NCBI RefSeq assembly: GCF_000003815.2 | Contig: NC_049980.1 | Span: 21,837,249 to 21,901,248, forward strand | DNA length: 64,000 nucleotides | Direction: 5' to 3' | Source of the DNA: Branchiostoma floridae | Taxonomy: Eukaryota > Chordata > Leptocardii > Amphioxiformes > Branchiostomatidae | In this document: positions 1 through 35,116 of the stretch, one piece after another | How the letters are laid out: every line of letters begins with the position of its first letter | Position numbering within the stretch: the stretch's first letter is position 1 | Made by a program: the position numbers and the translations under genes | The notes under the pieces: generated by a model | What the model was told of the DNA's origin: nothing | Database searches by the model: none | What the model saw: the letters and a program-made list of their open reading frames with translations, nothing else

Positions 1-1099
1 CGTTCCCTTTGCACATCCTTGGGTCCAGGAATAACAGTCACCGGCCTCAGCGTAAGACACATCGTTGTATCCTGTGCTCATGGAAAAGGTAGACATAAGA
101 CGATATTGCTCAACAGTGACGGGACCATAGAACGTAAAGTATGTAACAAACAACAAGGCGTTTTTAACCATGGTACCAGCAACACATTTTTACACTCTAA
201 GCATTAATGGATTACGCATCAATGGATTAAAGAACTCAAGGATTTTCTGCCGGCTCACTCCACTGTGTTCCCGCCGAGTGTTTTAATGCGAACGTGCCAT
301 CACTACATGTAACGTTACTAGTATATACTTGTAGATATACTGGTATCAGTGCAGCTCAACAGTTTGGAAGTAAAAACATAGACGGTGGTATGGAATAGTC
401 AAATGTTTGCCTACCATTGCTTTTGGCAAAGGTGAAGTCATCTCTTATCACCATGATTGTGTTGTTTTCAAACTTGATCCTGATCTTGTTGAACATCGTG
501 GTCCCGGCATCTGCAGATTGGTCCTTGAGATGAAATATACAAGGTGACCTTGCATTGTAATCAAAACACGTTTCTGTTGCACTTTGCGGTGCTTCCTGGT
601 GTTCCAAATCAACTAATGTCAATTTCTAACCACCACAATGTTTAGCAACTTTTTTCTTGGCTTGAAAGCTCATATGTCTCAAAAAAAGTCAGTGTAACTG
701 ATTCATCCTGAAGCACAGTTTAACCGTCCAACTCCAGTCTTCAGAATTGACAGAGGCTGCAATTGGAGGGTCAAAACATTGATCCACTTTTTGTGTTGAA
801 AATAGTTTAACTTTGACTCAGACTTTGTCTCGTGGTAAATAGTCCGCCATTTACCTGTAATGGGCCGTCACACAGATGTCCATGTATTAAGCGATCAGCA
901 AAGACGATTGCGTAGTTCTTCTCTGGGCCAGACGGCAGGGACAGGAACTCTTCCGGGTTTTCGGACGCCATATTGTGGCAATAGACGCTGATGGATACAT
1001 CTGTGCACGCCGTGAAAGGGTAGAGTGTGTACTCTCCATCGCCGCCTGTAGGATTCATAGCTTTCGCTTCATGGCACGTTGTAGCCCTGACATCTGTAG
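1..1099 (-). CDS. Mosaic lectin exons 20-22: GON domain (incomplete at window edge)
   Basis: Exons 1099-855 (phase 1-0), 625-415 (0-1) and 71-1 (1, continuing off the window) encode most of a GON domain, residues about 1233-1408. Motifs in order are [64 protein letters not shown] and [13 protein letters not shown], matching the order in the C-terminal GON domain of ADAMTS9 and ADAMTS20. The known context is metalloprotease plus thrombospondin repeats; none is visible here. The domain should end roughly 50-70 residues beyond the window, so the stop codon is probably close upstream of base 1. Confidence 0.82.
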
Positions 1100-4000
1100 C
1101 TGTGAAGGAAACGCATCGTATGAGGTTATGTTGATTCGAGCTTTTGTAAAGAAAATATATTATGATAAGACATTGCTTATATCTGGAGAATCTTTCGGGA
1201 AAATGACATATGTAAAAGGAAAATGTACTGTCGCTAACCTGGCGAAAACCGACACTAAAGGATTTTAAGAGAGAATATTGTCTTCAGCTGTATAGAACGA
1301 AGCGAGGACTATGTATGCAAACCGATACACTTGTAGAAACGCCATAACTGCACAGTATCTCAATAGGCACTGCCATTGCAGGGACTATGTGTAGGTAGGT
1401 AGGTTCTGTTCAATATGGCAACCTTGGTGCAATCAACGTCGCCCTTTTAAAAGCTTACAGCCTCAGGCCTTACCACATGTCGGTACGTCGCACAGCTCCC
1501 ATCTCGTGCTGGGATCCGTGGTGTAGCACCAAACTCCGGATTCGCCGTCAGGATTCCGGCAGTAGTTCTGCTCCAGTCCGGATGACGGTAGACGAGCAGT
1601 TATGTTGTTTGCATGTCTATGTGGTGTCTGACTGTCCCAGCGTTGACACGTCTTCCCTGTTTTGGTCGCAGAGACTGTTCCTCGATAGGATGCTCCATTT
1701 CCCTCCTGGCAGTATTCTGAAAAAACAAAACAGCATTTCCCACAGAAGTTGGGAACTGCAAGCTTACCTTACAATTCAACTTTAGCAAACATCAGGTAAG
1801 AGTAGATTTTCAACTTGCGAAAAAAGGCCCTCATTCATCATTCTCTCAGACATTTCAATCCCTAGAACACAATTGACACACCATATTCAAAGTAGATGAA
1901 CTGTATTGATATAGACATCTAACTCATCACCATTACCGGGGTACTAAAGTAAGGCCGAATAGCAAAGAAGATGGACGCTATTAAATAACGTTAGACATCT
2001 AATTCATCACCATTACAAGAGTAATACCGAATGGTAACAGATACCTGTTTGAGGTATTAAAAAAAAAGCAATATAGCAGCTATCTCTGTAAAGAAATGAA
2101 CATGCTGCCTGGATACATTGTCTCATTGCGAATCACTGTTTTTTTCACCTTCTGATGGTGTTGTCTGTACAGTTGGTGGAGGCTGCTCCAGCGGAGTTGT
2201 AAAGTGTCGGATTTCCTCCTCCTTCTGTTGAAGCTGAGTTGTGAAGGCTTGCATCCTGTCAGTTGTGTGCAGCAACAGGTCGTCATTCTGATGTGTAAAT
2301 TCTGCCGCGGTGTGCGGAGTGTTGTCGGGAAGCTCTCCGCTTGGTGATACTGGTAAGTCTGCAGAGTGTTTCAAAATGTTGGTGCGTCTCGATTCAGTTT
2401 TACACACAAAGAGGCACATGCACAGTCATTTACACACATATGCGTTATTTCTGGGTTGTGATATCTAGCCAGCAGAGGAGTTTTATTCCACCGCAGTTCC
2501 AAAACAACTTAAACTTATACCACTTACTCTCGGCATCAAGAGCTGTCTGCCACTCAAAAGTCATAGCCACAGCATGTTCAGAATACGAGATATCAAACCA
2601 GAAAGTTGCGCTGAAGTACCATAACAGGCTGCTAGGAGGGCCCCCAAAATCTAATCGTTTTCAGGTCTCATCAGGACCTACTAACATACCGAATATCAAT
2701 ACAATCCATCCAGGTGTTCTTGAGTTATGCTGGTCTTCTACATAACGTTACATACATACAAACATAACCTTCTTGGCGAAGGTAAATACGTGTAAGACGT
2801 TGCAATAGGGTCGTTTCCTGCAATATGGCATATCATAGCAACATTGAACCACATAATTTATGTATGCTGCAGAGACGTAACGTTAGTTTGCTGTGTTATA
2901 ACGCACGTACACACCCTATGGCACCATTTCCGTGTCAGAATTTCGTGTTATGTACCTTGCACAAGCGCTGGCTGATATATCAATACTTTGTTTCAACCCG
3001 TCGTTTGTTTCGACGCCTGCAAGCATTACCATAACAACAACAAGGCACACTTATCAACGAGTCCAAATACCATTGCGCTAATATTTACCTGTTCTCCCAT
3101 AATACACTTTGAAAATATCGATAATGACGGCATTTGTATTCTATCATATAAACTTCTTCTCTTTATGGAAAGGATATTTCGAATTCTTTCACACCTTTGT
3201 AAAATAGACATAAAATTGTCGAAAAGGTGAAGATGCACAGATGCCATGTTGCCGGTTTGATTTATTTGAGAGTTGTGGGCCAACAAACGTGATGCAGTTA
3301 GATGGAGCTGGACGTGAATGTAAATGTCTATCTTTTCTGATAACAAAGCGAGTAATGTACCTGTGTTTCTGTAGTCAACACAAGCCGGACAGTCACAGTG
3401 GTCTGCAGTGTTGCCGCACCAGTTGTGCTGGGAGCAGCATGGGACACCACCTGCCGGGTTGCATTCAGCAGGGTTACCGTCTTCAGCAGGGTAGCCTTGC
3501 CCGCAACGATGGTCATCACGCCACTTCTTAGGAGCTATCAGGACAAAATGCAGTTAGTCATTTATGGTTTCGCTTTATAATGATTTGTCATATATGTACA
3601 CGCAAATGTCAACCATAGCTATAGGAAGAGCCCTTTGATGTTAGACTCCTTATAATTTTGTTCTTGTTCTCAGTTAATTTCATTCTTTGTTCATTGTTCT
3701 CCACAGTAAATGATTTATTTCTACCCTGACACGTATGTACGCTTGTTTTATGATACACATTTTCATACTATATTTTGACACGGAAATTGTAAAGATGAAA
3801 AAGGGACATAAAGCCCCTTTCGCCCTTTCGCCCTACCAAAATGACGTTTTTATGCTATACTTGAAGCATTGCAGACACATTTACGTTCAGTTTCGTTTAT
3901 TCAGGGTACCTTTAACATACGAAATTTTGACTCGGAAGTGATGAAATAGTAATTTTTGTTTTGAGACGATATCGTATACAAAAAACCATATCGTTTTAAC

Positions 4001-7000
4001 CGGAAAAGAAGTTCGTAGACGCATGTTCGCTATTTTTCCGTGTCAAAATAACGTATCTAAAATGTCATACACGTCACCTTAGGAAAAGGACCCTAGGAAA
4101 GAGTGACGTATGCCCCAAGTAAGTGTGATGTGTTCGTAATTGGTCGGAGGTCACTTATTTTACGTCCCATATGCATGTGGCTTGAATTTAGCACTATACT
4201 GGACACAGCGGCACATCACGTCCACAATGCAAAGAACTATGACACACCTTTCTTATGGAAACACCACTTCATTGTTGGGACTGAGGAATCGAAACAGCAT
4301 CCTCGCTGGCGGCACTGGTGTTGGGTGATGCCTCCCCAGCCACATTCCTGCCGCAGTGACGGTTCCACCAGGCATTCTTCTGGTAACATTCCTGTTGTGA
4401 TGCAGATAACAACATTCAAAAAGATGATCAACCACGAAAACAGAAGTTCTGCATGCGTAGATAAAGTGACCCATCCTACTATAGGATATTTGGTTTGGTT
4501 TGAAGTATAGATGAGGCATGCTTTTTTTACCTAGAATGGCTCGTACTTAAGTACACATCTGAATTTAAGGCTTTTGGACATCCCAAAACAATGCAAGCAC
4601 GGAAAAAGATTGTTACGGAAAAACGACGTTTGAAAAACCAGGTAATTGAATACACATGTGGTTTGAAGTGAACGTAAAAGTAGACGCGCCAAAATACGCG
4701 CTTAGCACATACTGACCTGTAATCTGGTAGACCTCATTTGCCCATGGCCCGCCTTCGCCGTCCGCTGCACAGGCGATGGAAGGGCCGTACTTGGAGTGGG
4801 TGGTGTGCGCATCAGCTGACCCAGCACACCAGCCGCCAGCTTGCAGAGCAAACACGGGAAAACCACGGGAAAGTGCTACCTGGTAACACTTCTCTATGGG
4901 GTTGTTACGTGTAAAGAAGTCACCATCTAGGCGTGCATCTGTCTTCTCGAGGGTCGGAATGGCGCGGTCATAGGCGTCCTCCCAGCAACCCAGGCTGGTA
5001 TATCCGCGGCTTTCGCTTCCTGTATGAGAACGATAGGTATTACTGTACTGTAATCCTTTAGTGTACCTGGTTCGTTAGAGGTAAGGTCTTATCACAAATT
5101 AATTGACATAGTTTCTAATGTATGAACACATACAGTCAAATCCGGTAAGGCTGCCATCTGAAGAAGAATCTGCTTTTTTCCGGCTCTCCTCAAGTCCTGC
5201 CACAGTAACCTGGTATCCAGCCGTATTTTAACTCCCGAGAGTACTCTTCTGTTCTAGTATTTGTGGAAAGGATGGAAGAGACTCGGCGGCTATAATTATG
5301 ATAGGCTGCCCCCATAGACCACCCGATAAATTTAACTGCGACAAGCATGGTACGTAGCATTTTGACTGCATGAAATGAATGCTTGCTTTTAATTAATAAC
5401 AGGGGGCTACGGTATTTTTGTTGCAATAACTCTATTTGGGAAAATTAGCCGAAGAAAATGAGGTAAATGGATTGTCCTCTTTCAAATATGTGGAACAAAC
5501 GACCCTTCAGAACTGAAAATAGATATAAACATATCACAGAGTAGACACGATGCTGGAAACTACTTATCCTTCACCTGCTGGTGTCACTGGTGTCCCGACC
5601 TCTGTAGAAAACTGCTCGTTCTCCTCCTGCCTCTGTTGAAGGTGATTTGTCAGGTCTTGGATCTCCTTCTCCTTCTGTTGAAGTCGTATCTTAAGATCTT
5701 GGATTTCCTCATCCTTCCATTGAAGTTGGGTTGTAACGTCTTGGATCTCCTGATCTTTCCATTGGAGTTGAGTGGTAACGTCTTGGATCTCCTGATCCTT
5801 CCATTGAAGTCGAATGTTAACGTCTTGGATCTCCTCCTCTTTTTGATGAAGTCGAATGGTAACGTCTTGCATCTCCTCCTCCTTTTGATGAAGTCGAGTA
5901 GTAACGTCATGGATCTCCTCCTCCTTTTGATGAAGTCGAGTGGTAACATCATGGATCTCCTCGTCCTTTTGTTCAAGCTGAGCTGTAAGCTCTGTGATGG
6001 TCTGGGCTTGCTCCTGAACCTCTCTGTCTTTCTCATGCAGCTCCTGGATCCGCCACGTACAGCCATCTTCGTCTAGCCCAGGTGTGGTGTGTTGTTCGTG
6101 CCCTGCAAGCATGAATTCATTTGAGATTAATGTAACCATCACTGCTATTGCTATTTGCCGATGCTTTGAATTGAATCACTCGCCAAATCATACTGAGTAA
6201 GTTTAGCACTGATGACAGCCTGTATTGTAAGCACACGGCCAATACTTAAGGTTTACCCTAGTCATTGAAGATTGTACGAGATTTACCAGGATTATTGGAG
6301 GATTCTGTCTCCAAAGGTGGTGCCTCTGTCATCAACATGGTTTGGTCGGAGACTGAAGCTAACGCCACATCTGGAAGAAAACACAAGAGACCAAAATTAA
6401 ATCAAAGACTGAAAGACATAAAATCAAAAATATCCTTGCAATAGCAGACAAATGCATTTAGTGAGATGATAATTCTTTGAAAGGTTTTGGATTCGCTACA
6501 AACTGCATTGAGTTTTTATCATAATAACAGCACCATTTATTCTACACCATAGAATGCTGAAATTGGCAATCAAACATTAATGCAACCAATATGTGTACTA
6601 GTATCTATAGACCGCAAACGTTTGGTGACATGATATAACTAACAAGACCAACTTTTGGTATCTATGCTCTAGCTGCCAACGAAAGTTAGAATTTTTTTGA
6701 GAGAGACGACCTCTACATACATCTCTGTAGGTGGAATTAAAAAGCACTTTCTATCAAAGAGGAGAAGAGATTAATGATGATGATGATGATGATGATGAAT
6801 CCATGCATGTGTTATTTTGTATCATTGTTTAGTAACGGTGTTTTCCGTACCTTTCTCACATACAAAGTGCCGTTTCTTCCTACAGTCTACATCATTCCAC
6901 ATGTAGTCCAATTCCTGACGGATCTCCACGCAGTCTTCGCCGTCTCCAACTACCGCATTATCGGGGTTACCTGGGCGCCAGTGTGTGTAATCTGTATAAA

Positions 7001-10000
7001 ATAGAGATGCTAAAAATACCATACTGTACTGTAATGTTTCCGATGATGTCCCACTTCACAGCATTCTTGTGAACAATATTAAGTCATGCCAGGTATATTG
7101 TAAAATTTTATACATTCGTTTAATTCATAAAAGGTTTATTACCTATCATTATATTCTGATGCCAACAAGCAATATGTAAAAACTCACACAGAGTAACGAG
7201 GTACTTGAGAATTTCCTTAGGTATAAGTATGGAATCTTCCTACGAAGGTCTTTATGTTTGGTGTCGGATATGGCTCTGGGGAAACCAGGATCTGAAAATA
7301 TCCAACCTCTGTTACCTAATGAAGTCTAAAAGTAACCAAACATTCAAGAACGAATTATGATATCCAGATGCAAGGTGGGGCCATACGAAGGTATCAAACT
7401 ATAAAGATGATGAAGCTATGAAATCCTGGTAGTTTAGATGGAAGATCGATTAGAATGGCCCGTCTTCATTAATAGGGGACAGCAATGGCTTAGTACGCAG
7501 GTAAGCACACAGTACAGCTAGTAGGGAATTAATGTACATTCTGCTGAATGCTGACAAACTGATGATAGTTACCAGATGCAGTTAGTTCGGTTCCATCAGT
7601 CCACACAAACGTCCCCTCCTCCTGGGCATCACTTAGACCAATCCAGTAGCTCAGGGTACGTTCGTAGGGGAGTCTCCTACAAGTATACAGAATAATTTCA
7701 GTTGTATCTCATAATTCTATATGACAAGTATACAGAATAACGTCAGCTGTATCTCACAAGTCATCATTCTATCTGACATCTCTTACAAGAATACAAAATA
7801 GCTGCACTTATATCTTATCATTCTGACTGCCATCTCGGACTACAGTACAAAATAACATCTGCTGTAAGTTTTCGTTAAAGTCAGAGTAACTTCATACTTC
7901 TAGCTGACATTGTAATAAAGTTTAACACTCGCCAAACTGGAATTTTTTTCTTCATTCCTGTTTCTACAAAATAAAACACACCAACCTGATTTTCTTCCTG
8001 ATGAAGAGATCTGTTTCTTCGTCCTGGAGGACCGCAAGTCGCCCCCCGTCTTGCTCGCAGATGGTCTTGGCCCTCCTGAAGTTCGCTTTCTTTGTGGAGA
8101 GTCTAAAACACCTGTCTTTAAACCCCACCAAGTATAGAGGTGGACAGATCCATCGACTGATCTTTTCTGAAAAACAACAATGAAAGTTTCCATACTATGG
8201 TTATGAAACTTTACGATTTTTCAGGATCTTAATCTAGGGTTGCACGTGGCGGGTATCAAGGACAATTACATGAAATAGTCCAAAGCAAACCAAGTTCACC
8301 TTAAAACTACTATCAGCTACCTCATCAGCGACCACACTGTGTTTCGAGTTCCATTGAAGTTTGAAGTTTGATTGCAGACGAGGGATAAGCTGTTCTTACA
8401 CATGAACCCTTCATTTTATCCGTGTTTCCGAAGTTCGATCGTGCATCCAACCATCTTAAACCTTGACAAAGATTGTTGTAATGTTGGCCTAATGACGGTA
8501 TCATATGCGGAAGATTACCTTTCTCGCAAATGAAGTTCAACCTTGATGAACAAGGTGCATCATTCCAGTCATGGCCCACAGACATTTCTACACAGTCTTC
8601 CCCGCCACCGTTGTCAGGTTGGTGTGGGTACCAGTTGGTGTATGCTTTGTGTTAAATAAAGGAAATGGAATTGATAGTAATTATGCAATATACAATATGG
8701 TGTTGGCATACACACCAGGCATACACATCTAAGCGACGAGTACGTTTAAACTGTGATCCAAAGCAAGTACAAGCGAAGTGTGTGCAGATTGCAACTGTGC
8801 TTAGCAGTCTTGGTAAAATCTAAATTCCTGATCAAAGTCGAAGATGGCAAGAAGTAGCTTGACAACTTATAAATGGTTAAATGCCCTCTGCTTACAAAGG
8901 CTACACGGAACATTCGAAGACATCAGACACTAATACATTGTACTTGCTAGCGATAGTCTGTGGGAGCCGATTTCAGCATTTCAAATCTTTGACAACTTCT
9001 CAATACAAAAGTGCAAATTGCTGGAGCAGCTTTTGTGTTGAGTATCTCATTACCTAACCTTCATCAACGCATCGATAACTTCATTATAATCAACACCAAA
9101 TGTAATCTTTTTCTTGTGAGTTGCAAGTCATAACTAAAAAAAAATAAGTGCTGCATAATCATAAAGTTGTAGTACCTGCAGGAGATTCCGTCTCATCACT
9201 CCGCACGAACGTCCCTTCGCTGCGCACGTCTGTCAGTCCAATCCAATACGGCTTTCCATCAGCCCTGGGTGGTAACCATGAAGGCTTTATGTAGTGAACT
9301 TTCTGACTGCCCGGTAAACTTGACCCCAACATTGGGCCAGGTTCGCCTACCCGCTTACCTTACTCACATATAGACATGGCGGCACAAGGCAGTAACGGAT
9401 TGCCACCGGCAAAGCATATGGTATACACACAGTAGGGCAGGAACGCCTTAATCTTATCCCCGAACCATGTGTGGAAAAAACACCCAATCTACAAACGATA
9501 TCTCACAAATAAACCTGCGCACATGCAGGAGCACCATTCAACACTTTCATGTCATAAAAAAAGAAAAAGAAAAGAATGTCAAACCTTATTTTCTTCACAA
9601 CTAGGTGGTTGGTGTCTTGGGCATTGATGATCGCTAAAATTCCTCCATCGCGTTGACAAACGGCTTTGGCTTCACCAAATGTCATTTGCTCAGTTGACAA
9701 CTTGTAGCATTTGTTGTTGTACTCGGAGTAGCTATCGGGACAGGGCTGCAGTGGTAGCCCTGATGATAAAGGAAAACATACTATCAATGGTTTGATAAAC
9801 ATGACATGCTTTATCTAGTTAGTAGCATCCGTTTTTAGATCTCAATTCGTTGCATTTACTTTTTGGTCAAGATTGATATAGAATGAGAAATGTTCTTCTA
9901 AAGCATAACGGTGTCTTTGGTCCAGACTCCAGAAATATTTCTTTTGTGTGCCAAATCACCCCATAACTTTTCAATGCAGGCGCTCAATTGAAAGACGTTC

Positions 10001-13000: not shown

Positions 13001-16000
13001 CAAAGCTGAAATCGGGCGAACCTCGGGCGAACCTTGGGCGAACCTCGAGCGAAGGCCGGCAAAGGCCGTCCGAGTTTCAGACTGGAAGCCGTTAAGACAT
13101 GAAGAAGATATGATCTCTCACACATACAAACCTATATGTATATATAATAGCAAAAACAAATACACAGGAAGTACTGCCTTCGTGTCCAATTGCCTTACAT
13201 TATAAAAGGTACGCAGCTTTCTTGGAAAAGTTCATGCAGTAACGTTAGTCTTTATCTATCTTATATTTCGGAACAAACTGTTTGCTAAAGATGAAAGCCC
13301 AAAACAAAGGCACGTGTTCAACACAGGTGTCAAATTGATTAGGTGACAGTTAAAATTCTGCCGGAGCCCTCCCGACCTCCCAGCGACACCAGCACAACGC
13401 TCGCCCAAAGCATGATAAACTTGTTAAAAGTCGGGCGGAATATCGTCCGGTTATTGCAGGAAGCCCGAACGAGTCTGGCGCGAGGCAAAAGAGTTCGGGC
13501 AAACTCCGACCGAAAAGGAGAGAGTCAAAAACCGTCGGGTTGCCGCCCGAGTATTGGCCAAGTCTTGGCCATTGCTCGGACAAGCTCCGGTCGAGCTACA
13601 GGCAACCCATTGACGAGCTCTCCGAGCTCAACGCTCGCCGCCGAGGCCTCGCTGAAATTAAGCGCAGCTGCAAGTGCCCCGCAAACGCCGGCCGAGCTGC
13701 TAAAAATCGGTCGAGGCCCGCATAATCGCCCAAACGCCGGTCATACTCCGGCCGAAAATGTCCATTTGGAGCTCGCCAACAACTCGGCCGAGCTAAATTC
13801 TTTATTTGTAAAGGGGGCTTTAAGACGTGACGCTAGTGTAGTAGTCCAGTGTCACGTACCAACTAATATTCAGGGCTACCACACTGGTATCACATCTTTA
13901 ACTGCTTCCACATGAGATATTTTCAAATTTTCGGTATTCGGTAAATCCTCAATCAAAATCTGAACTAAGTTTAGTGAGCACATGTCCCAGGCGCCCCTGT
14001 ATCGAATTCCAGGTCCTTTGATTTTGATACGAGCTAACAGGAGCCCAAGTAAAAATATATTTCCCTCCCATGCTTATGGTAGAGAGTGAAATACAAGCAT
14101 CGCTCACCTGAAAAGACTTGAACCTCACACAGTGTTAGTATTCGGGAGTGCCCAGGAAGACGAATGCCCACGTAGCGTCCCGTCATCCCCTGGCACAAAA
14201 TGGAAATGGACGGCTGGTTCACGTTGATTTGGTGATCACCTCCACACTTGGGGTTCGTGCTGACCTGGTCGGAATCCCCGATGTGGATGTTGAAGGGGTT
14301 GATTCGTTCGAAACAACAGTCCTGGCGGTTGAAGATGACCACTCTGTAGACGGTGTTAAAATGTAAGAGCAGATAAAACGTTATTTAATACAGTTTTAAA
14401 CACGCCACCATGCTATGAATGGTCGTTGGAATGAAAGGCTCAATGCCATGTTACACTTAGAAACTGTGATGTATCCGAAAGATGTATCCGAAAGCTGAAT
14501 TTTCTTTCAAATATCAAAGGGGTATAACGTTAATCTTGTAAGCTTAGGAAGTGAAGAAAGGTTTATCATTTCTTATTTTGACGCTGACCTACACGTACCT
14601 GTTGATCGTAAAGGATTTTCCGAGATCCACCCACCACATGGGGTTGTCCTCCATGCCATTGTGTTGACATGAGTTAGCGTAGTATTCAGTATTGGTGTTC
14701 CCGTCTACCGCAAGGCTGGCGCCCATGCCCCATGCGACGGTTGTTTGGAACGCCGGCTTGCCTTGAGCGATGTTTGTATCCGTTTCAGGCAAGGCGTCTG
14801 TAAAAAAAGACGTAGTTCCACAAACGTAACATTAGCTAGCAAATAGAGCACATTTACTCGCAAGACTGGGCTGTTTTGAATCATCCCTTTGCAAAAATAC
14901 ACCAACCCAAATTTATTTCTTGCGAGATATGGACTATTCCAACATCACTCCACTTCAACATAGAATTTTCCAATTTGACCTCCTCTTCCAAAAATACCCC
15001 TATGTGTACCGCTCCAATTGCCCTTTCCACTTCTCTTGTATGAAAGGTACCCCAAAATCAAACTTCAGGTCATTTGGCTTTCTTATGTAAGACATGTATG
15101 TACATTGTCAAAATGTTTGATAATGATTCTCTTCCTATTTCAAGCAAAAAGAATTGGGTGTCTGACTTCCAGCAGCGCAAGTTGACCCGCCACATCAGGT
15201 CAGGTCAATTGAACACGTTTTTTTCCTTCTCCCTTACCTAACATTACTGGGTGTCGCCTGCAAAGTAATGATCACAATAATTTGAATTTTGGTACATATT
15301 TATATAAGACTTTATACTTGGCATCTATGCTTCGAAATCTGAGCTGTGCTTATCATTTCTCGGTACAGCCGATGACTTATTGATAACTCACGTACATGTA
15401 TAAAGTCTTATATAAATGTGTACCAAAATTCAAATTATTGTGATCATTACATTGCAGGCGACACCCAGTAACGTTAGGTAAGGGATAACGAAAAAAAGTG
15501 GACAATTGATCTGCAACCTGAGGTGTGCGGGTCAAATTGTCTGATCACACTTTACCCTTCTTTTTTTCGCCACTTACCTTCTAATTTAGAAAACAACGAA
15601 TGCCTGGAAAGTAATGACTCCAATGATTTGTAATTTGGAGGATATTGATAAAAGGCTTCATACTATGAAGTTGTGCCTCAAAATTTGAGTTGTGCTTATC
15701 ATTTCTACGTGGGGCCGAGAACTTATTGATCACCCCCTCGTATGTGCATATGCCCAAGGTAATGTTACTCCAATACCACAATGTCAGCTCATTCGGTTTT
15801 AAAGCCTGAACATAGGAGCTCAAATTACACTGTTTTTCTGACAATAGCCCAAAATCTAAAATGGACATTCTTAAAGTGTATAGCAAACATTAAAAAAATA
15901 TGTATGCGAATGCCAGAAAACAGAAGTGACATGCGAACGTGTCATGGTCATCGGGACCAGATAAAAAGGCGAAAACTGCTTGCCTGATATTTGGCGCTGC

Positions 16001-19000
16001 CCCAACTTACTTATAATTTATAAATGCTGTAAGTATCCAGTCTCTTCATTTAGGACATGTTGATTTGATTGATATATAGATGGCATCATCCGTGAACCCC
16101 AAACGGATCCGAGCGTGCGAACAAAAAAAAAGTTTGGCCCCAAAATAGTTGTATTTAATATGAATTCTAAGTAATTAGGGAGGTTGAACGAATGAGTGAA
16201 CGCATAGGTGCAGGAAATGGCTGGTGCAGTCTGGTGTAGTCAGTGTTACATGTGACTCGTTAACGGTAACGATATAACAGCAATATGGACAGTGTTAGAA
16301 CCGTTAGTTGTCGCCATCATGAAAGATGAAAAACGAACCCGTGATTTGGTAAACTTGGTTTCCCCAAGGTCCTCCTTCGCCGTCCGTACCACAGCTTGTG
16401 GAGGGCCCGTACGTCTTGTAGGTTAGCCCCGCGCTGGCTGAAGAGCGACAGTGACCTCCATTTTGCAGCGCAAACACGGAGAAACCTCGTTCCTTGGCCA
16501 CCTGGTAGCACTTCTCAATGGCGTTCTTACGATCATGGTATCCTCCGTCCAGACGTGCATCGGTCCCTTCCAGGGTCGGGATGGCTCTGCCGGGATTCTT
16601 GTCCAGCCAGCAGCCAAGGCTTACAATATTCGGGATCGCAGCTGGTTTGGGAGCTGTAACGCGTCATATGTAAAGGTTTGTTTCTAACTAGAGGTAAGAT
16701 TGATAGATAATGATAAATGTATAGGTATAGAGGTCAGACCTCAACAGTGACAACGTACTATATAGTTTAGCATTGTTGGCTGAAGAGCGCCAATGAGGTC
16801 AATTCGGCTGTAAGTCTTACCTTCACTCTGCTCAGGTTGGTCTGTTGCCGTAATCGTGTCGTCAATGTCAGTCAGTTGCACGTCCTTCAGTTCGCCCTTG
16901 TCACACATTTGACCAGACAAATCCTTTGGTTCAAACTCCGCATAGATCCTGCATAAAAGCGGAAGCGTGCATTTTAGCCGCAGGTTTAGGCAGTGAATTA
17001 ATTTCTAAGTCTAAGAGACCCAACATGTTGACGGGGCAAAGTATGTCGGATACAAGACATCAATGTATGCTACATGATCGATGACAAACTTCGCCTCGTA
17101 GCGAGCGTGATTCAGAAAGTAATGCCACTGGTCTTATAACAGGACCATTTTTTTTCATCGAATGAGTTAAAATTTGGCAAAAGGGTAAAGGGGTATATCC
17201 TCTTGAGATTGAGATATCTCAATTTGTTGTTTAGGTTTTTATGAGTGACTGAGTTGAGTTCAAGATGACCACACCCTTGGTAGCGTGTACTAGTAATTCA
17301 CGTATTTGGCTGTTATTCAAACTGTCTGTCATATAGAAACTCCATCCATTCTAGCAGCTGTAAAAGAGGAACCATTGAGATTTCAGAAATGGAAATTGGC
17401 ATTTAACATATAAAGACACTCGCTATTATACAGATAGAAGTGGGTCAGATCTAAAGAAACTGATCTTCTGACAATCTTGCAAGGGTGTGGGCATCTTGAA
17501 ATCAACTCAGTTGCTCATAAAAATCTGAACAACAACTTGAGATATTTCAATCTCAGGAGGATATACCCCTCTACCTTTGTGCCAAATTTCATCTCATTAG
17601 ATGAAAACATGAGCCTGTTATTGCTTTCTGAACCACCCTGGTATGAACATTGTAGAGCAACGACTTCCGATCACAGAGTGAAGGAATTCTTGGATAGTCG
17701 CGCATATGTCATACAAAATCCAGCTGTTTTCTCACGGTCTTATGTCGCTGTCTATAGTTGCTATTGCTATAGCCTGTTTACGAAATCAAAATCGTATGAC
17801 GACCTACGACTGATGAATGCGCGCCGAAAAGTATCGATAAACGTAGCCAACCATGCCCTCCCGATTCCGAACTACATCTAACCTTCGCCCAATTAAATGG
17901 TTCTTGGGTAGGGGAGGGTATCGGTACGGTGTACCGGTACAAATCCGATTTTTCTTGTCGGACCGATCCGGAAAAACCGAACCTGAAAAAATTCATTGTA
18001 CCGGATGTTGGACCGATTCGAAAATGATCAAATTGTACCGGAAGGCGTTAACGTGTTCTGGGGCTTACAGGTCCAAGCAAACAACAAGGGCGAAGCAGAG
18101 GAGAGTTGATAGTCATTTTACCAGGTTTCCACTGTCAAACTTGGTCTAAGGCTCATTGATGAGTTTTCTCTTCCAATAGACTTCTATGTTATAATACGTG
18201 TTTTAGATGGGCGCGTTCATAATAAAGCAACTTGAAATATATATATATATATTTTCAAATCATATTGATATTATTCATTCTTTGTTGAGCACATTTACCC
18301 TTCATCATGTAAAAATATTCCCAACAACCTCTAGACATGCATTTTTTTACTGACTATTACAAAATGCAGTTCGCCAAGCATCGCAACACTTTTTAGCTGC
18401 CACCAGCCAACCGCACAACTCAGAACCCAGGACTGTGTACCTCCAACATAGCGCGCAGCTGCTAAACTTTACCTGCTAATTTCTTCAGTTAAAAACAAAC
18501 TTTCATCAATCTAACTTTTGAGATCAGTTCGGCTGACTAAAAGAGAATTTCCCACTGTCAAAAATATGCGTCTATGTAGCCGTTTAGTTTTTGGCTCGGA
18601 TCTCTTACCCACTCGGAGTAATACATCAAGGAGACCCTAAAACAGATGCAGTTAGTGTTGTTTACATGAAGATAGGATTTTAAAGCGCAATTGGACGTCG
18701 GATACTCCACCTAACAGAATCTTTTGTTAGCGAAATGGACCATTGTTTAGAGTATAATAAGTTCACAGATAATCAGGTTCAGGTCCGGACCTGGTTCTGA
18801 TCCTCTGGACCTGGACCGCACCTTGACTTAAATTTTCTATACCGGTACCCACCCCTATTCTTGGGTGTCGGTTGGAGGCAAGGTCGGCTGTGGCTGGTAG
18901 TTGGTTGGGGCTGTTCTCTACTAGCCGGCTGCGCCAGCCAAATGTTTCAAATGTTTAAAACATTCGGCTGTGGACGGAAGGTTTGGAATAGATTGGGACA

Positions 19001-20326
19001 CGGTTTGCGACTGGCAGTTGGGAGTAAGTCAGCAGTGCTCGGGGCGTGGTTCGGAGTAAAATGTGACTCGCAAACACGCTACAAACACTGCTGGTTGACT
19101 TCCAACCAGTTCGTACCCTACCCATAACTCACTCCAGATCCTTAGAAGAATGTCTCCTACGCTCGTAGCTCATTTCCAACCAAGGCGATTAAGACCTTCA
19201 CACAACCGACACACTACCAAAAACACATTAAAGGATTATAAAAGTCAGAAGTCGCATTGAAGCTTTGATCTCTCGGTGATATTTAGTATTGATTGCTGCG
19301 ACCAGTCTGCGGCTAGTTTACTGAGTGATTTAGAGTGGTATAAGTTAGAAAGCATCATTCGGGGATCGGTTTAAAGTGTGGGTGTCGCATGAAATGATTG
19401 GGACAGGATTGTCGCTAAAACATTGGCGTGGCCTAAAACCAGTCAGACGGTCCCTAACCTACGTCCTACACAGCCACCTGGATGGCTCGTAGTCAGGGGT
19501 GGTCCTGAATGTGTGGCCGGAGTTTAGAGTGGATACCGTAGTGACGTAAGCACAGTGCTGGGGGAGAGACACAAGAACTAAACCGGTGTCTGCATGAAAA
19601 TTTCTCCCAAGACTTTTGCTGTGTTGATTTTAGTTCCGTCTTCCTTTTAATTCATTTTGTGACAAAATCGTAACTTTTGACACTGCTTTTTGTCGACGAA
19701 TATTTTTTACAACATTATGCAGATACATTCATTGATGGTTTGTTGCACAGAGCTTATAACGCCGTAGTATAAAATGTACGGGTATATGATCTCCAAGCGG
19801 CGATTTACCGGTGACCAACTGGATACTGCTCTGCCCATTGTGATACATGTATATATTCATAGATGCTTGGAATAAATCATAAATATTTTCAAACAATCCG
19901 GTTATGTTCTGGACCACGATGAACATTTTATCACAGTGCATAACATGATCATTAAAGCGAAGAGTCCTGAAAAACCTCTTTGATTCAAGTTTTCGTAATA
20001 ATCACAAATGACTGCAGGAAGGTTAGTGACGTTTGTGCAAATGTACTCAATAAAGGAAATGAAAAAAGCACAATAAACAATATTTTTATCAGAAGTGAAA
20101 ATGCTGACAAACACTTGAATCTGAGGAAATCATTTAGCTGTTGTAAAATAACATTCTAACATTACCTGCAGCCGTCGTAGCGGAGTTGTGCCATTGTCCA
20201 GTTCGGGATGATGTCGTGCTTCAGGTCAGACATAGTCGTGGAAGGTTCTTGTTGGCGATGTACAGGAGTATGCGCTGCCACGGCGATAATAAGGAAAGGT
20301 AGTGCGATCATGGATAACTTCGCCAT
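1..20326 (-). CDS. Mosaic secreted lectin gene with F-type, C-type, trefoil, kringle and GON domains (3' partial)
   Basis: I do not recognise this architecture as a named gene. Exons (high to low coordinate): 20326-20166, 16948-16821, 16653-16339, 14797-14599, 14343-14108, 10294-10139, 9759-9585, 9264-9176, 8644-8519, 8166-7986, 7676-7573, 6991-6851, 6370-6287, 6102-5575, 5019-4717, 4391-4248, 3534-3361, 2358-2149, 1716-1474, 1099-855, 625-415, 71-1. All junctions have AG/GT borders and the phases run through without a stop, giving 1,408 codons, open at the window edge. Module borders are almost all phase 1, the signature of exon shuffling. A signal peptide and many disulphide-rich domains point to an extracellular or mucosal protein with glycan binding. 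What is seen: exons, phases, motifs. What is inferred: that all exons form one transcript. It could instead be two genes, but no internal stop, start or polyadenylation signal argues for that. The longest introns are 20165-16949 and 14107-10295; the latter holds a foldback transposon. Confidence 0.8.
1474..1716 (-). CDS. Mosaic lectin exon 19: kringle domain
   Basis: A single phase 1-1 exon of 81 codons (residues about 1152-1232) forming a whole kringle. It begins [18 protein letters not shown], keeps [27 protein letters not shown] and ends ELCDVPTCG, with the six kringle cysteines. The lysine-binding kringles of plasminogen use an Asp-x-Asp pair after NP; here the stretch is NPDGE, so lysine binding is uncertain. 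The TTTTTTCAG acceptor and GTAAGG donor are strong. Confidence 0.88.
2149..2358 (-). CDS. Mosaic lectin exon 18: short coiled coil related to exon 14
   Basis: A phase 1-1 exon of 70 codons (residues about 1082-1151). It contains [20 protein letters not shown], one clear unit of the 14-residue repeat seen nine times in exon 14, followed by a Pro/Thr-rich tail ending TTPSEG at a GTGAAA donor. Exon 14 ends in a similar Thr/Pro stretch before a GTGAAG donor. The two exons are therefore probably duplicates, the second not amplified. An acceptor nine bases downstream (start 2349) is also in frame. Confidence 0.65.
3361..3534 (-). CDS. Mosaic lectin exon 17: hevein-like cysteine domain
   Basis: A phase 1-1 exon of 58 codons (residues about 1024-1081), [20 protein letters not shown] at the start, then [25 protein letters not shown] and VDYR. 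The CCS..xWCG core is the hallmark of chitin-binding type 1 (hevein) domains, and this WRDDxRCGxGYxAxxG variant is one I associate with amphioxus extracellular proteins. Chitin or GlcNAc binding is an inference. It overlaps another open frame on the same strand that lacks cysteines and is not used. Confidence 0.75.
4248..4391 (-). CDS. Mosaic lectin exon 16: P-type trefoil domain
   Basis: A phase 1-1 exon of 48 codons (residues about 976-1023) that is one trefoil domain. All six cysteines are present in the family order (EEC, QEC, HQC, GCC, WCF), with CGWGGIT and RGCCFDSS near-diagnostic. Trefoil domains are protease-resistant and occur in mucin-associated proteins and zona pellucida proteins. 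An alternative acceptor 12 bases downstream (start at 4379) is also in frame. The donor is GTGTGT. Confidence 0.87.
4717..5019 (-). CDS. Mosaic lectin exon 15: second GCW/DGEGG cysteine module
   Basis: A phase 1-1 exon of 101 codons (residues about 875-975) closely similar to the module at 16339-16653. It has [44 protein letters not shown] and [14 protein letters not shown]. The acceptor is CATACAG and the donor GTCAGT. It is the better preserved copy. The shared start, length and phase mean that a complete exon was duplicated within the gene. Function is not known to me; the domain travels with lectin and kringle modules here. Confidence 0.75.
5575..6370 (-). CDS. Mosaic lectin exons 13-14: linker and nine-unit coiled coil
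   Basis: Exon 6370-6287 is a 28-codon Ser/Thr/Glu linker; exon 6102-5575 (176 codons, residues about 699-874) is a long coiled coil. The core is nine near-identical 14-residue units, consensus [14 protein letters not shown], that is two heptads each, encoded by a 42-base coding minisatellite. The exon ends at a GTGAAG donor in phase 1; reading straight on would hit a stop a few codons later, so the splice is needed to reach the next module. The coil probably multimerises the protein and spaces the lectin head from the C-terminal cysteine-rich modules. Unit number is likely polymorphic. The antisense frame is open but only a shadow of the repeat. Confidence 0.8.
6773..6797. repeat. (ATG)n microsatellite
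   Basis: Eight consecutive ATG units in the mosaic lectin intron just downstream of exon 12. It opens a meaningless poly-methionine frame on the plus strand. Confidence 0.9.
6851..8166 (-). CDS. Mosaic lectin exons 10-12: C-type lectin domain 2 (NPD type)
   Basis: Exons 8166-7986, 7676-7573 and 6991-6851 encode a second C-type lectin domain, residues about 529-670, with the same phases as the first. Motifs are [44 protein letters not shown] and FVCEKG. The sugar-contact tripeptide is NPD rather than the QPD of domain 1 or the EPN of mannose binders, so its ligand may differ; WND for calcium is kept. The first intron between these exons contains an irregular tandem repeat (7,680-7,880). Confidence 0.87.
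7680..7880. repeat. Degenerate tandem repeat in intron of C-type lectin domain 2
   Basis: About four irregular units of 45-60 bases, each containing ACAAGTATACAGAATAA-like and CAG(T/C)TGTATCTCA-like words, run through the intron between exons 10 and 11. Divergence between units is considerable. No coding potential. Confidence 0.55.
8519..9759 (-). CDS. Mosaic lectin exons 7-9: C-type lectin domain 1 (QPD type)
   Basis: Exons 9759-9585, 9264-9176 and 8644-8519 (phases 1-2, 2-1, 1-1) encode a complete long-form C-type lectin domain, residues about 399-528. It starts [17 protein letters not shown] with the extra N-terminal cysteine. It has the WIGL core (YWIGLTD), QPDN in the long loop, [11 protein letters not shown] (DWNDAPC) and a final FICEKG. 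In this family QPD plus WND usually means calcium-dependent binding of galactose-type sugars; specificity here is inference. Intron positions match the second domain (exons 10-12), so the two arose by tandem duplication of a three-exon cassette. Confidence 0.88.
10139..10294 (-). CDS. Mosaic lectin exon 6: short coiled coil
   Basis: A phase 1-1 exon of 52 codons (residues about 347-398) with a TTTCAG acceptor and GTTAGG donor. The middle ([12 protein letters not shown], then [12 protein letters not shown]) has Leu/Ile at heptad spacing and is rich in Lys/Glu, so a short trimerising or dimerising helix just before the first C-type lectin domain is likely, much like the neck of collectins. Its position, stranded between the foldback transposon and the lectin exons, makes it easy to miss; phase continuity supports it. 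Confidence 0.65.
10774..11589. mobile_element. PIF/Harbinger-like 816-bp element nested in the foldback
   Basis: The insertion has perfect 13-base terminal inverted repeats (TACCCCCCTCACA / TGTGAGGGGGGTA) and is flanked by TTA on both sides (10771-10773 and 11590-11592). The corresponding point in the right arm (around 13,705) has a single TTA, so the empty site is present in the same molecule. A 3-base TTA/TAA duplication is typical of PIF/Harbinger superfamily elements. No transposase is recognisable, so it is non-autonomous. Another CCCCCTCACATATAC near 10,881 repeats the terminal sequence internally. Confidence 0.8.
12236..12282. repeat. Short tandem repeat in foldback arm (mirror copy near 13,010-13,055)
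   Basis: The sequence GGTTCGCCC(A/G)A recurs three times in tandem with about 12-base spacing, and again in reverse complement on the other arm. CG-rich variants of the same word (GCCCGAAC, GGGCGAACG) are scattered over both arms and also in the nested 816-bp element, suggesting related binding sites or a common origin. Confidence 0.55.
14108..14797 (-). CDS. Mosaic lectin exons 4-5: F-type (fucolectin) lectin domain
   Basis: Exons 14797-14599 and 14343-14108 join in phase 2 to give a complete F-type lectin (FTP, SM00607-like) domain, residues about 202-346. Visible hallmarks are [10 protein letters not shown] at the start, [20 protein letters not shown] with the adjacent cysteines typical of F-lectins, and [10 protein letters not shown] before EVQVFSG at the end. 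The family's fucose-binding motif HX26RXDX4R is intact: a histidine in CQHNG, then exactly 26 residues to the Arg of RQDCCFER. Known members (eel agglutinin, tachylectin-4) bind fucose in a calcium-stabilised fold, so fucosylated glycan binding is a well-supported inference. Confidence 0.88.
15181..15540. mobile_element. Inverted-repeat (MITE-like) element
   Basis: Two arms of roughly 135-145 bases face each other: left from TGACCCGCC.. at 15,183 through CCTAACATTACTGG, AATTTGAATTTTGGTACA to about 15,316; right about 15,397 to 15,535. The pairing includes GGGTGTCGCCTG/CAGGCGACACCC. A diverged relative follows at about 15,550-15,780 with similar internal words (GAGTTGTGCTTATCATTTCT). The elements sit in the intron between mosaic lectin exons 3 and 4. 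Confidence 0.65.
16050..16240. mobile_element. Partial copy of the GTTGATTTGATTATATGGATG transposon family
   Basis: The stretch with ACATGTTGATTTGATTGATA, GATGGCATCATCC, CCGAGCGTGCGAAC and AAAAAAAAAGTTTGGCC parallels the left end of the element at 26,131-27,022. Only this end is recognisable; the matching right end is not seen nearby. Intronic (mosaic lectin gene). Confidence 0.5.
16339..16653 (-). CDS. Mosaic lectin exon 3: first GCW/DGEGG cysteine module
   Basis: A phase 1-1 exon of 105 codons (residues about 97-201). Key motifs are [20 protein letters not shown], then [11 protein letters not shown], then ALQNGGHC and [15 protein letters not shown] second copy of the module is at 4717-5019. 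I have seen this kind of module in invertebrate deuterostome and cnidarian extracellular proteins but cannot give a family name with certainty; it is loosely WSC-like in opening with GCW and having spaced cysteines. The donor is GTTCGT, weaker than usual, so the 3' border is less certain than the rest. Confidence 0.7.
16821..16948 (-). CDS. Mosaic lectin exon 2: linker
   Basis: A 128-base exon between a TTATGCAG acceptor and a GTAAGA donor, entering in phase 2 and leaving in phase 1. It encodes about 43 residues (about 54-96), starting [13 protein letters not shown], with one cysteine and an acidic Asp/Thr-rich tail. I recognise no domain. Its cysteine may pair with the one at the end of exon 1. 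It is the only exon before the repeated phase 1-1 modules begin. Confidence 0.65.
17108..17645. mobile_element. Element with about 155-bp terminal inverted repeats
   Basis: Left arm 17,108-17,272 and right arm 17,488-17,645 are inverted copies: GTTCAGAAAG..AATGAG(T/A)TAAAATTTGGC and GGTATATCCTC(T/C)TGAGATTGA(G/A)ATATCTCAA are clear in both. The 215-base middle has no open frame of note. Non-autonomous transposon in the first long intron of the mosaic lectin gene. Confidence 0.65.
17908..18857. mobile_element. Non-autonomous transposon with TAGGGG(A/T)GGGTA ends
   Basis: The ends read TAGGGGAGGGTATCGGTACG and, inverted, TAGGGGTGGGTACCGGTATA. The interior words (ATCCGGAAAAACCGAACCTG, GGTTTCCACTGTCAAA, CAGGTCCGGACCTGG) recur in the same order inside the element at 26,340-26,790, showing a dispersed family. 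No transposase seen. Confidence 0.6.
20166..20326 (-). CDS. Mosaic lectin exon 1: start codon and signal peptide
   Basis: The ATG at 20326-20324 opens a 53-codon exon ending in phase 2 at a GTAATG donor. Residues 1-19 begin [18 protein letters not shown], a short basic n-region, a hydrophobic core and small residues before the likely cleavage site: a classical signal peptide. The rest is short and hydrophilic with one N-glycosylation sequon (NWT) and leads to a cysteine. A longer reading frame starting at 20468 overlaps in another frame, but it has no signal peptide and does not join to downstream exons, so I chose this start. A TATA box lies about 145 bases upstream. Confidence 0.8.
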
Positions 20327-34792: not shown

Positions 34793-35116
34793 GAGGTCAG
34801 GAAAATGGGGGGATCTCTCCAAGATCTACGCTGTCGCCAAGGGAATATCCAGCGAACTTACAGGTATGAAGTTGCATGGTTTACACCTGCCTTTTTACAC
34901 ACGTCACTACTTGTGATAACTGTTACACCACAATCAGCAGCCAGGGGGCGTTATTGCAACAAAATACCCACAATTCTCCTGCACAGTGGCGAACAGAGGG
35001 CAGTCAGAGGTGTTGTAAATATTTATGCCAACTCTCCGAGTTATTCAGCGGGTTCATAGCAAGCCAGTGGATTCGATACTGTAAGTTTAGGTAAAGAAAC
35101 GCATTGCGTGGTTACC
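34793..35116. promoter_or_regulatory. Shared divergent promoter of the TIR gene and PRCC
   Basis: Only 324 bases separate the minus-strand TIR start codon from the plus-strand PRCC start codon. No TATA box is seen on either side. A bidirectional promoter is the simplest reading, provided the TIR start exon is right. Confidence 0.45.

What the first reader, a model, noticed from the sequence alone, without database searches (positions are those of the whole stretch)
1..20326. A single gene combining F-type lectin, two C-type lectins, trefoil, hevein-like, kringle and GON domains
Twenty-two exons join with consistent phases into one open frame of 1,408 codons. I know of no described protein with this combination. 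It merges fucose-type and galactose-type lectin heads, multimerising coils and protease-resistant mucosal modules, as expected of an extracellular pattern-recognition or mucus protein.
Basis: partly seen in the sequence, partly recalled or inferred. Interest (0 to 1): 0.9.

Follow-up and report, generated by a model that had tools for sequence, protein, structure and literature searches.

The report
Giant shuffled multi-lectin gene in amphioxus
This amphioxus gene appears to encode one very large secreted protein stitched together from many reused exons, with four kinds of sugar-binding domain, and a related gene has the same intron without one of those exons.

Summary
The 22 exons join into 1,398 open codons, every intron GT/AG. 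The window cuts the gene: next door it runs on to a stop, giving 35 exons and 2,401 residues. Order: signal peptide, WSC, F-type lectin, linker, two C-type lectins, coil, WSC, trefoil, hevein-like, linker, kringle, GON, linker, kringle, glycine-rich domain with an F5/8C exon inside it, EGF-like, an unnamed three-exon domain, SUEL lectin.

I read it as a soluble multivalent lectin built by exon shuffling. All 21 introns between modules are phase 1. Seven module kinds belong to exon families of 15 to 150 or more places in the same genome. A paralogue on C4 has the glycine-rich domain without the F5/8C exon, an empty site.

It is not a new kind of protein: amphioxus exon shuffling is in print, fucolectin plus two C-type lectins is described in lancelet APEC proteins, and WSC-F-type-C-type paralogues exist here. 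The full order was not found. There is no RNA evidence, so the single transcript and the function are inferences.

The parts
20166..20326 (-). Exon 1: start codon and signal peptide; TATAAAAG 153 bases before the ATG
16821..16948 (-). Exon 2: N-terminal linker
16339..16653 (-).
   Evidence: 25.2 bits alone; 30.7 bits for the joined protein, cut-off 27.8
14599..14797 (-). Exon 4: F-type lectin, first half, with the His of HX26RXDX4R
14108..14343 (-). Exon 5: F-type lectin, second half
10648..13826 (.). Intron 5 insertion: TTAA-flanked long inverted-repeat element with a nested TA-flanked element at about 10774-11589
10139..10294 (-). Exon 6: linker, possibly helical (heptad pattern weak, 0.4)
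8519..9759 (-). Exons 7-9: C-type lectin domain 1 (9759-9585, 9264-9176, 8644-8519), QPD and WND
6851..8166 (-). Exons 10-12: C-type lectin domain 2 (8166-7986, 7676-7573, 6991-6851), NPD and WND
6287..6370 (-). Exon 13: linker
5575..6102 (-). Exon 14: coil, 8.5 tandem copies of a 42-bp (14-residue) unit; heptad pattern 0.71
4717..5019 (-).
4248..4391 (-). Exon 16: trefoil
3361..3534 (-). Exon 17: hevein-like chitin-binding domain, relative of the CBD of amphioxus PGRP3
2149..2358 (-). Exon 18: linker with one coil-like unit; with exon 19 duplicated downstream
1474..1716 (-). Exon 19: kringle 1
1..1099 (-). Exons 20-22 (1099-855, 595-415, 71 to beyond window position 1): GON domain, completed outside the window

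Best explanation
A real single gene, 35 exons over about 31 kb (C2:21826442-21857574, minus strand), encoding a soluble secreted protein of 2,401 residues. It was assembled by exon shuffling in phase-1 introns from dispersed exon families. Its likely work is that of a multivalent extracellular agglutinin or pattern-recognition lectin: the heads bind fucose (F-type), galactose-like sugars (C-type 1), rhamnose or galactose (SUEL) and chitin or peptidoglycan (hevein-like); the coil multimerises chains; disulphide-rich modules stiffen the stalk and resist proteases; the product coats microbes or mucus. Shown: frame, splice signals, domains, sugar-site motifs, exon families, the cassette duplication, and a paralogue lacking one exon. 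Inferred: a single transcript, insertion (not loss) of that exon, sugar binding, multimerisation, tissue and immune role.
For: One open frame from signal peptide to stop across 34 introns, all GT/AG. Pfam; solved relatives for F-type, SUEL and hevein-like modules. 26 of 34 introns are phase 1, and 21 of 21 between modules; the other 8 lie inside a domain (7) or before the first module (1) (module borders assigned by me). 18 of 21 introns between modules are under 1.1 kb. Signal-peptide first-exon candidates over all 34 introns: 6 against 4.6 in resampled introns, exon 1 detected as control (but see against). Exon families, lower bounds, this gene included: WSC 134, F-type 149, kringle 41, GON 32 (hand-merged from 60 exon matches), hevein-like 15 places; F5/8C 151 and SUEL 103 matches. 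C4 paralogue without the F5/8C exon. Linker-kringle cassette duplicated at 87-88% identity, intron included. Sugar-site motifs.
Against: No transcript evidence. A published lancelet fusion of Lectin_C and fn2 domains, predicted alike in two species, was refuted by ESTs (PMC4967905). The 6 first-exon candidates sit in 4 introns where only 0.1-0.4 each were expected: E12/E13 (2), E17/E18 (1), E25/E26 (1, before the glycine-rich domain) and E29/E30 (2, in a frame open into the EGF-like exon). AATAAA occurs in 10 of 34 introns. One chitin-site Trp is His. C-type domain 2 has the unusual NPD. The linker shows no constraint between its two copies (dS 0.064, dN 0.059). No second amphioxus genome could be searched.
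Confidence: 0.6

Rival explanations
1. Two or more adjacent genes read as one: an N-terminal lectin gene (signal peptide to GON or kringle 2) and a separate glycine-rich-EGF-X-SUEL gene.
For: EGF-X and glycine-rich-EGF-X blocks occur in other places (C7:3.957 Mb, C4:21.46 Mb). A comparable amphioxus fusion was shown false by ESTs (PMC4967905). A signal-peptide-like start is found in the 1,071-bp intron before the glycine-rich domain (1 against 0.1 expected) and two before the EGF-like exon (2 against 0.15). AATAAA lies in 10 of 34 introns.
Against: Over all introns such candidates are near chance (6 against 4.6), and some lie in simple repeats. Glycine-rich, EGF-like and X follow each other in the same order twice on C4, which speaks against a start before EGF. 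The GON to second-linker and kringle 2 to glycine-rich introns hold no AATAAA. The second linker and kringle are an internal duplicate with acceptor and donor. Phases agree throughout.
Confidence: 0.3
2. The exons are real, but the product is structural (mucus, matrix or egg coat) and its lectin heads bind self glycans, not microbes.
For: Trefoil, kringle and GON modules and the absence of any Pfam enzyme domain or membrane anchor fit a matrix protein.
Against: Intact sugar-site motifs in three heads; the hevein-like exon is a relative of the chitin-binding domain that raises bacterial peptidoglycan cleavage in amphioxus PGRP3 (PMC4610682); lancelet fucolectin-CTLD-CTLD proteins are treated as defence genes (PMC12373286).
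Confidence: 0.3
3. Assembly artefact: separate genes joined by mis-assembly around the long palindrome in intron 5.
For: A 992-nt inverted repeat with one mismatch sits in intron 5; no other listed copy of the element has so long a second arm.
Against: The contig is 35 Mb with no N in the region; WSC-FTL is followed by C-type exons at C7 (L071) as here, and by kringle then C-type exons at C13 (L070); phases match across the element.
Confidence: 0.05

Closest known systems
Lancelet clade-I APEC proteins (PMC12373286, section read)
   Different: They go on to CUB and APEC; this gene has neither and goes on to WSC, trefoil, hevein-like, kringle, GON, glycine-rich, EGF-like, X and SUEL
WSC-FTL-CTLD and WSC-FTL-kringle-CTLD loci of the same genome (L071 on C7, L070 on C13)
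   Same: WSC then F-type lectin then C-type lectin; exon 5 is 82-87% identical in protein
   Different: The other modules were not matched in the 10 kb read of each; L070 has a hydrophobic, anchor-like stretch upstream (seen in its open frames, not tested)
C4:21.457-21.464 Mb gene (L074)
   Same: Glycine-rich domain, EGF-like and domain X with the same exon phases; 86-90% protein identity in the glycine-rich exons
   Different: No F5/8C exon inside the glycine-rich domain; goes on to Fz, not SUEL
Amphioxus PGRP3 (BbtPGRP3; PMC4610682)
   Same: Its N-terminal hevein-like domain is the best solved relative of exon 17
   Different: There it is fused to a peptidoglycan amidase; here no enzyme domain was found, and W53 is His
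Drosophila furrowed and CG9095 (PMC5712786, section read)
   Same: F-type and C-type lectin domains in one protein
   Different: They have CCP repeats and a predicted membrane segment; the other modules are not named there

Membership tests
F-type lectin | Homology to solved fucolectins | tested here: met
   6 distinct PDB sequences at E<=0.01, best FBP32 4.8e-44
F-type lectin | Fucose motif HX26RXDX4R/K (recalled) | tested here: met
   From residue 247, HNG...RQDCCFER
C-type lectin domain | Pfam Lectin_C over cut-off, two copies | tested here: met
   154.9 bits, two stretches
C-type lectin domain | EPN or QPD plus WND for calcium-dependent sugar binding (recalled) | tested here: inconclusive
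   Domain 1 QPD and WND; domain 2 NPD and WND
WSC domain | Pfam WSC gathering score | tested here: inconclusive
   30.7 bits on the joined protein, over the 27.8 cut-off; each exon alone 21-25 bits, below it; 14 of 14 aligned members, two from this gene, match at E<=0.01; a genome search with the WSC profile listed 74 matches but not this gene's exons; no PDB hit; 2-row fold model pLDDT 47, not used
Hevein / Chitin_bind_1 | Pfam gathering score | tested here: not met
   22.9 bits against 27.8
Amphioxus PGRP3-type CBD | Homology to 4z8i/4zxm | tested here: met
   6e-15 over residues 3-56
Amphioxus PGRP3-type CBD | Two chitin-binding tryptophans (W53, W55) | tested here: not met
   Alignment, numbered by me: W53 is His, W55 kept; roles from PMC4610682
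SUEL / rhamnose-binding lectin | Pfam SUEL_Lectin; YGR, DPC, KYL motifs (motifs recalled) | tested here: met
   66.4 bits, cut-off 31.4; YGR, DPC, KFL; 5h4s 3e-50
Kringle | Pfam Kringle, six cysteines | tested here: met
   1.5e-27 and 3.1e-28; 6 Cys each
GON domain | Pfam GON, most of the model covered | tested here: met
   Model 2-137 in the window and 139-194 beyond it, of 199
F5/8 type C (exon 27) | Pfam gathering score | tested here: not met
   F5_F8_type_C 27.7 bits against 28.2; F5_F8_type_C_2 26.6 against 27.8
EGF-like (exon 30) | Pfam match | tested here: not met
   No match at E<=1; the label is mine, from its cysteines
Lancelet APEC clade-I proteins | CUB and APEC after the lectin heads | tested here: not met
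   Neither in the two halves scanned
Single transcript | cDNA spanning the modules | not testable with these tools
   No RNA data held

The most novel reading that the evidence does not exclude
Amphioxus keeps a genome-wide stock of phase 1-1 domain exons that are copied one exon at a time between secreted-protein genes, by insertion and by exon-bounded gene conversion, and this gene is a collecting point of that traffic: a many-headed lectin whose make-up is still changing.
Probability: 0.3. Interest if true: 0.82.

Novelty: new variant of a known kind. Interest (0 to 1): 0.62.

Why it matters
Whether amphioxus really builds new domain combinations at a record pace (Huang 2014, PMC4284660) or whether many are prediction errors (Banyai and Patthy, PMC4967905 and PMC6071037) is disputed. 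The comparison of a glycine-rich domain with and without an F5/8C exon in its intron does not rest on automated gene prediction, since the flanking exons are parts of one domain in both places. If one transcript is confirmed, this would be one of the most mixed lectin chains known to me, and a test case for exon shuffling in innate immunity.

Tried and rejected
A separate downstream gene was sought by scanning introns for signal-peptide first exons. The first version missed its own positive control, exon 1, so only the second version is used.

Recent spread of all exons was rejected: Nei-Gojobori dS of exon 15 to its relatives is 0.32-0.97 over 19 rows, of which L013, L019 and L072 are one place.

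Homology confined to exons holds for WSC in the 7 places compared of those fetched (to 5 nt past the exon, from 9-35 nt before it) and for F-type exon 5 in 4 of 4 compared (from 7-21 nt before the exon to at most 2 nt past its end), but not for the kringle: 3 of 4 compared run 24-112 nt into the intron.

Not all family members are intact: 4 of the 20 loci fetched for the WSC query have a stop inside the match (L022, L023, L024, L028).

The WSC fold model was too poor to compare (pLDDT 47). The WSC profile and domain X found nothing in the PDB. The glycine-rich query gave 3 PDB hits at E 0.14-0.95, taken as chance. C-type and coil exons were not searched for in the genome.

Papers, what I saw: PMC4284660 passages and section 14; PMC4967905 abstract, outline and section 12; PMC6071037 abstract, outline and section 13; PMC5712786 passages and section 13; PMC4610682 passages and section 8; PMC12373286 passages and section 10; PMC2575513 passages. 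The rest are search listings. Bishnoi 2015 on F-type lectins was not held.

Full report
Where it lies. The window is C2:21837249-21901248 of a held genome of 513 Mb in 431 contigs.

The gene. Position 1 falls inside the GON domain. I fetched 30 kb beyond it and continued by hand: 13 more exons, ending in a TAG stop, with AATAAA about 790 bases later. The whole is 35 exons, C2:21826442-21857574, 2,401 residues. A TATAAAAG lies 153 bases before the ATG. A bHLH frame lies about 6 kb downstream.

Domains. Pfam over cut-off in the window part: Lectin_C twice, GON, kringle, F5_F8_type_C_2, F5_F8_type_C, trefoil and, summed over two stretches, WSC. Beyond the window: kringle, SUEL lectin and the end of GON; the F5/8C models score just under their cut-offs (27.7 of 28.2 and 26.6 of 27.8 bits), and Gly_rich_2 is weak (E 0.013). 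The EGF-like label is mine; Pfam matched nothing there. Domain X (exons 31-33) matches nothing in Pfam or the PDB. The hevein-like exon is below Pfam's cut-off but is a clear relative of the chitin-binding domain of amphioxus PGRP3. The long coil is encoded by 8.5 copies of a 42-bp tandem unit. No strongly hydrophobic segment is seen apart from the signal peptide.

Is it one gene? For: one frame through 34 introns; 26 phase-1 introns, including 21 of 21 between modules; 18 of those 21 under 1.1 kb; coding GC 0.54 against 0.41 in introns. Mixed: signal-peptide-like first exons in introns are near chance in total (6 against 4.6), but they fall in four introns with 0.1-0.4 expected each, among them the introns before the glycine-rich domain and before the EGF-like exon; on C4 the glycine-rich, EGF-like and X blocks follow each other twice in that order, which speaks against a start at the latter. 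Against: there is no RNA, and a published lancelet lectin fusion predicted in two species was shown false by ESTs (PMC4967905). I put one transcript at about 0.7; kringle 2 to glycine-rich is the weakest joint.

Where the exons come from. In the same genome I found, as lower bounds and with this gene included, 134 places for WSC, 149 F-type, 41 kringle, 32 GON (hand-merged from 60 exon matches) and 15 hevein-like, 151 matches for the F5/8C exon and 103 for SUEL, on many chromosomes. Domain X has four other places. Of 29 clusters with at least two of the five listed module kinds, neighbours within 15 kb on one strand, this locus alone has more than two kinds (five); 13 clusters are a WSC followed by an F-type lectin. 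Most of these lists are capped at the best candidates, so absence elsewhere is weak evidence. WSC homology stops 5 nt past the donor and 9-35 nt before the acceptor in 7 of 7 places compared; kringle homology runs further in 3 of 4.

An empty site. The glycine-rich domain is coded by exons 26, 28 and 29, and a 447-bp phase 1-1 F5/8C exon (27) sits between 26 and 28. On C4 the same three exons are 86-90% identical in protein (dS 0.48-0.71), in the same phases, with a 287-bp intron and no F5/8C match in the 7.5 kb read (parts of which are N). After EGF-like and X that gene goes on to Fz, where ours goes on to a Ser/Thr stretch and SUEL. Insertion here is the simpler reading, since the exon belongs to a family with 150 other matches, most of them one open exon; loss on C4 is not excluded, because there is no outgroup. 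Intron sequence outside the exons did not align, so no breakpoint can be shown.

A duplicated cassette. The linker-kringle pair before GON recurs after it at 87-88% identity over 987 bases, intron included. Identity is patchy: a run of 200 intron positions differs at one, while kringle windows after the first run from 74% to 89%, which suggests partial conversion. No other listed match reached the linker (40 of 185 candidates scored).

Exon-level discordance. Against the same four two-exon F-type loci, exon 4 has dS 1.28-1.95 but exon 5 has 0.43-0.52; three single-exon loci are distant for both exons (exon 5 dS 1.25-1.76; exon 4 saturated). Conversion or separate shuffling of exon 5 would explain this; uneven alignment quality is a rival.

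What it probably does. F-type, first C-type and SUEL sites carry their known motifs (motifs recalled). In PGRP3 the hevein-like domain raised cleavage of S. aureus peptidoglycan about five-fold (PMC4610682); here one of its two tryptophans is replaced, so chitin binding may be weaker. With a coil for multimers and no enzyme domain or membrane anchor found, a soluble agglutinin or opsonin on mucosal surfaces is the best reading. A structural mucus or coat role is the main rival.

Known and new. Exon shuffling with 1-1 phase bias in lancelets is described (PMC4284660) and its extent disputed (PMC4967905, PMC6071037). Fucolectin plus two C-type lectins in lancelet APEC proteins is described (PMC12373286). 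Over 70 F-type sequence clusters in B. floridae are reported (PMC5712786). No paper in the open library holds both 'WSC domain' and 'F-type lectin', or all of amphioxus, domain, kringle and F-type lectin; subscription journals are mostly missing from it. The full order, the domain X family and the empty site are what I believe to be new.

Noticed in passing
window 10648-13826: Intron 5 holds a TTAA-flanked element with 992-nt inverted arms (1 mismatch) and a nested TA-flanked element at about 10774-11589. One search lists 45 other matches (capped; mostly 85-93%); three places have a short opposed second piece (about 130-360 bp), none a 992-nt one: a very recent fold-back or an assembly artefact.
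   Followed up: partly
L009 about 5620-4290 (intron 28, outside the window): Another insertion with inverted ends (GGGTCACAATTGG... / ...GAATTGTGACC) in the intron between two glycine-rich exons (read).
   Followed up: no
exon 4 (14797-14599) against exon 5 (14343-14108): The two halves of the F-type lectin have very different synonymous divergence from the same four paralogues (1.28-1.95 against 0.43-0.52), as if exon 5 were exchanged or converted separately.
   Followed up: partly
G000 C16:15.07-15.22 Mb: A dense cluster of WSC exons with GON and SUEL exons nearby: likely a family of related mosaic genes.
   Followed up: no
L009, exons 31-33: A three-exon extracellular domain (X) with no Pfam or PDB match, present in four other places, three of them on C4; in the three copies read (one in L073, two in L074) it follows an EGF-like exon.
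   Followed up: partly
L070:362-733 (C13): A hydrophobic, anchor-like stretch upstream of a WSC-FTL-kringle-CTLD locus: possible membrane-bound relatives of this secreted protein.
   Followed up: no
L009 3349-3771 (-): An open frame of 140 codons runs from inside intron 29 straight into the EGF-like exon, with hydrophobic starts upstream: a possible alternative start or chance.
   Followed up: partly
window 25804-26130 (+), 40680-41228 (-), L010:2587-3183 (-): Neighbours: a ceramidase-family frame, an Hsp20/alpha-crystallin frame and a bHLH frame. The frame at 35060-35590 (+) looks to me like PRCC (recalled; no Pfam match).
   Followed up: partly
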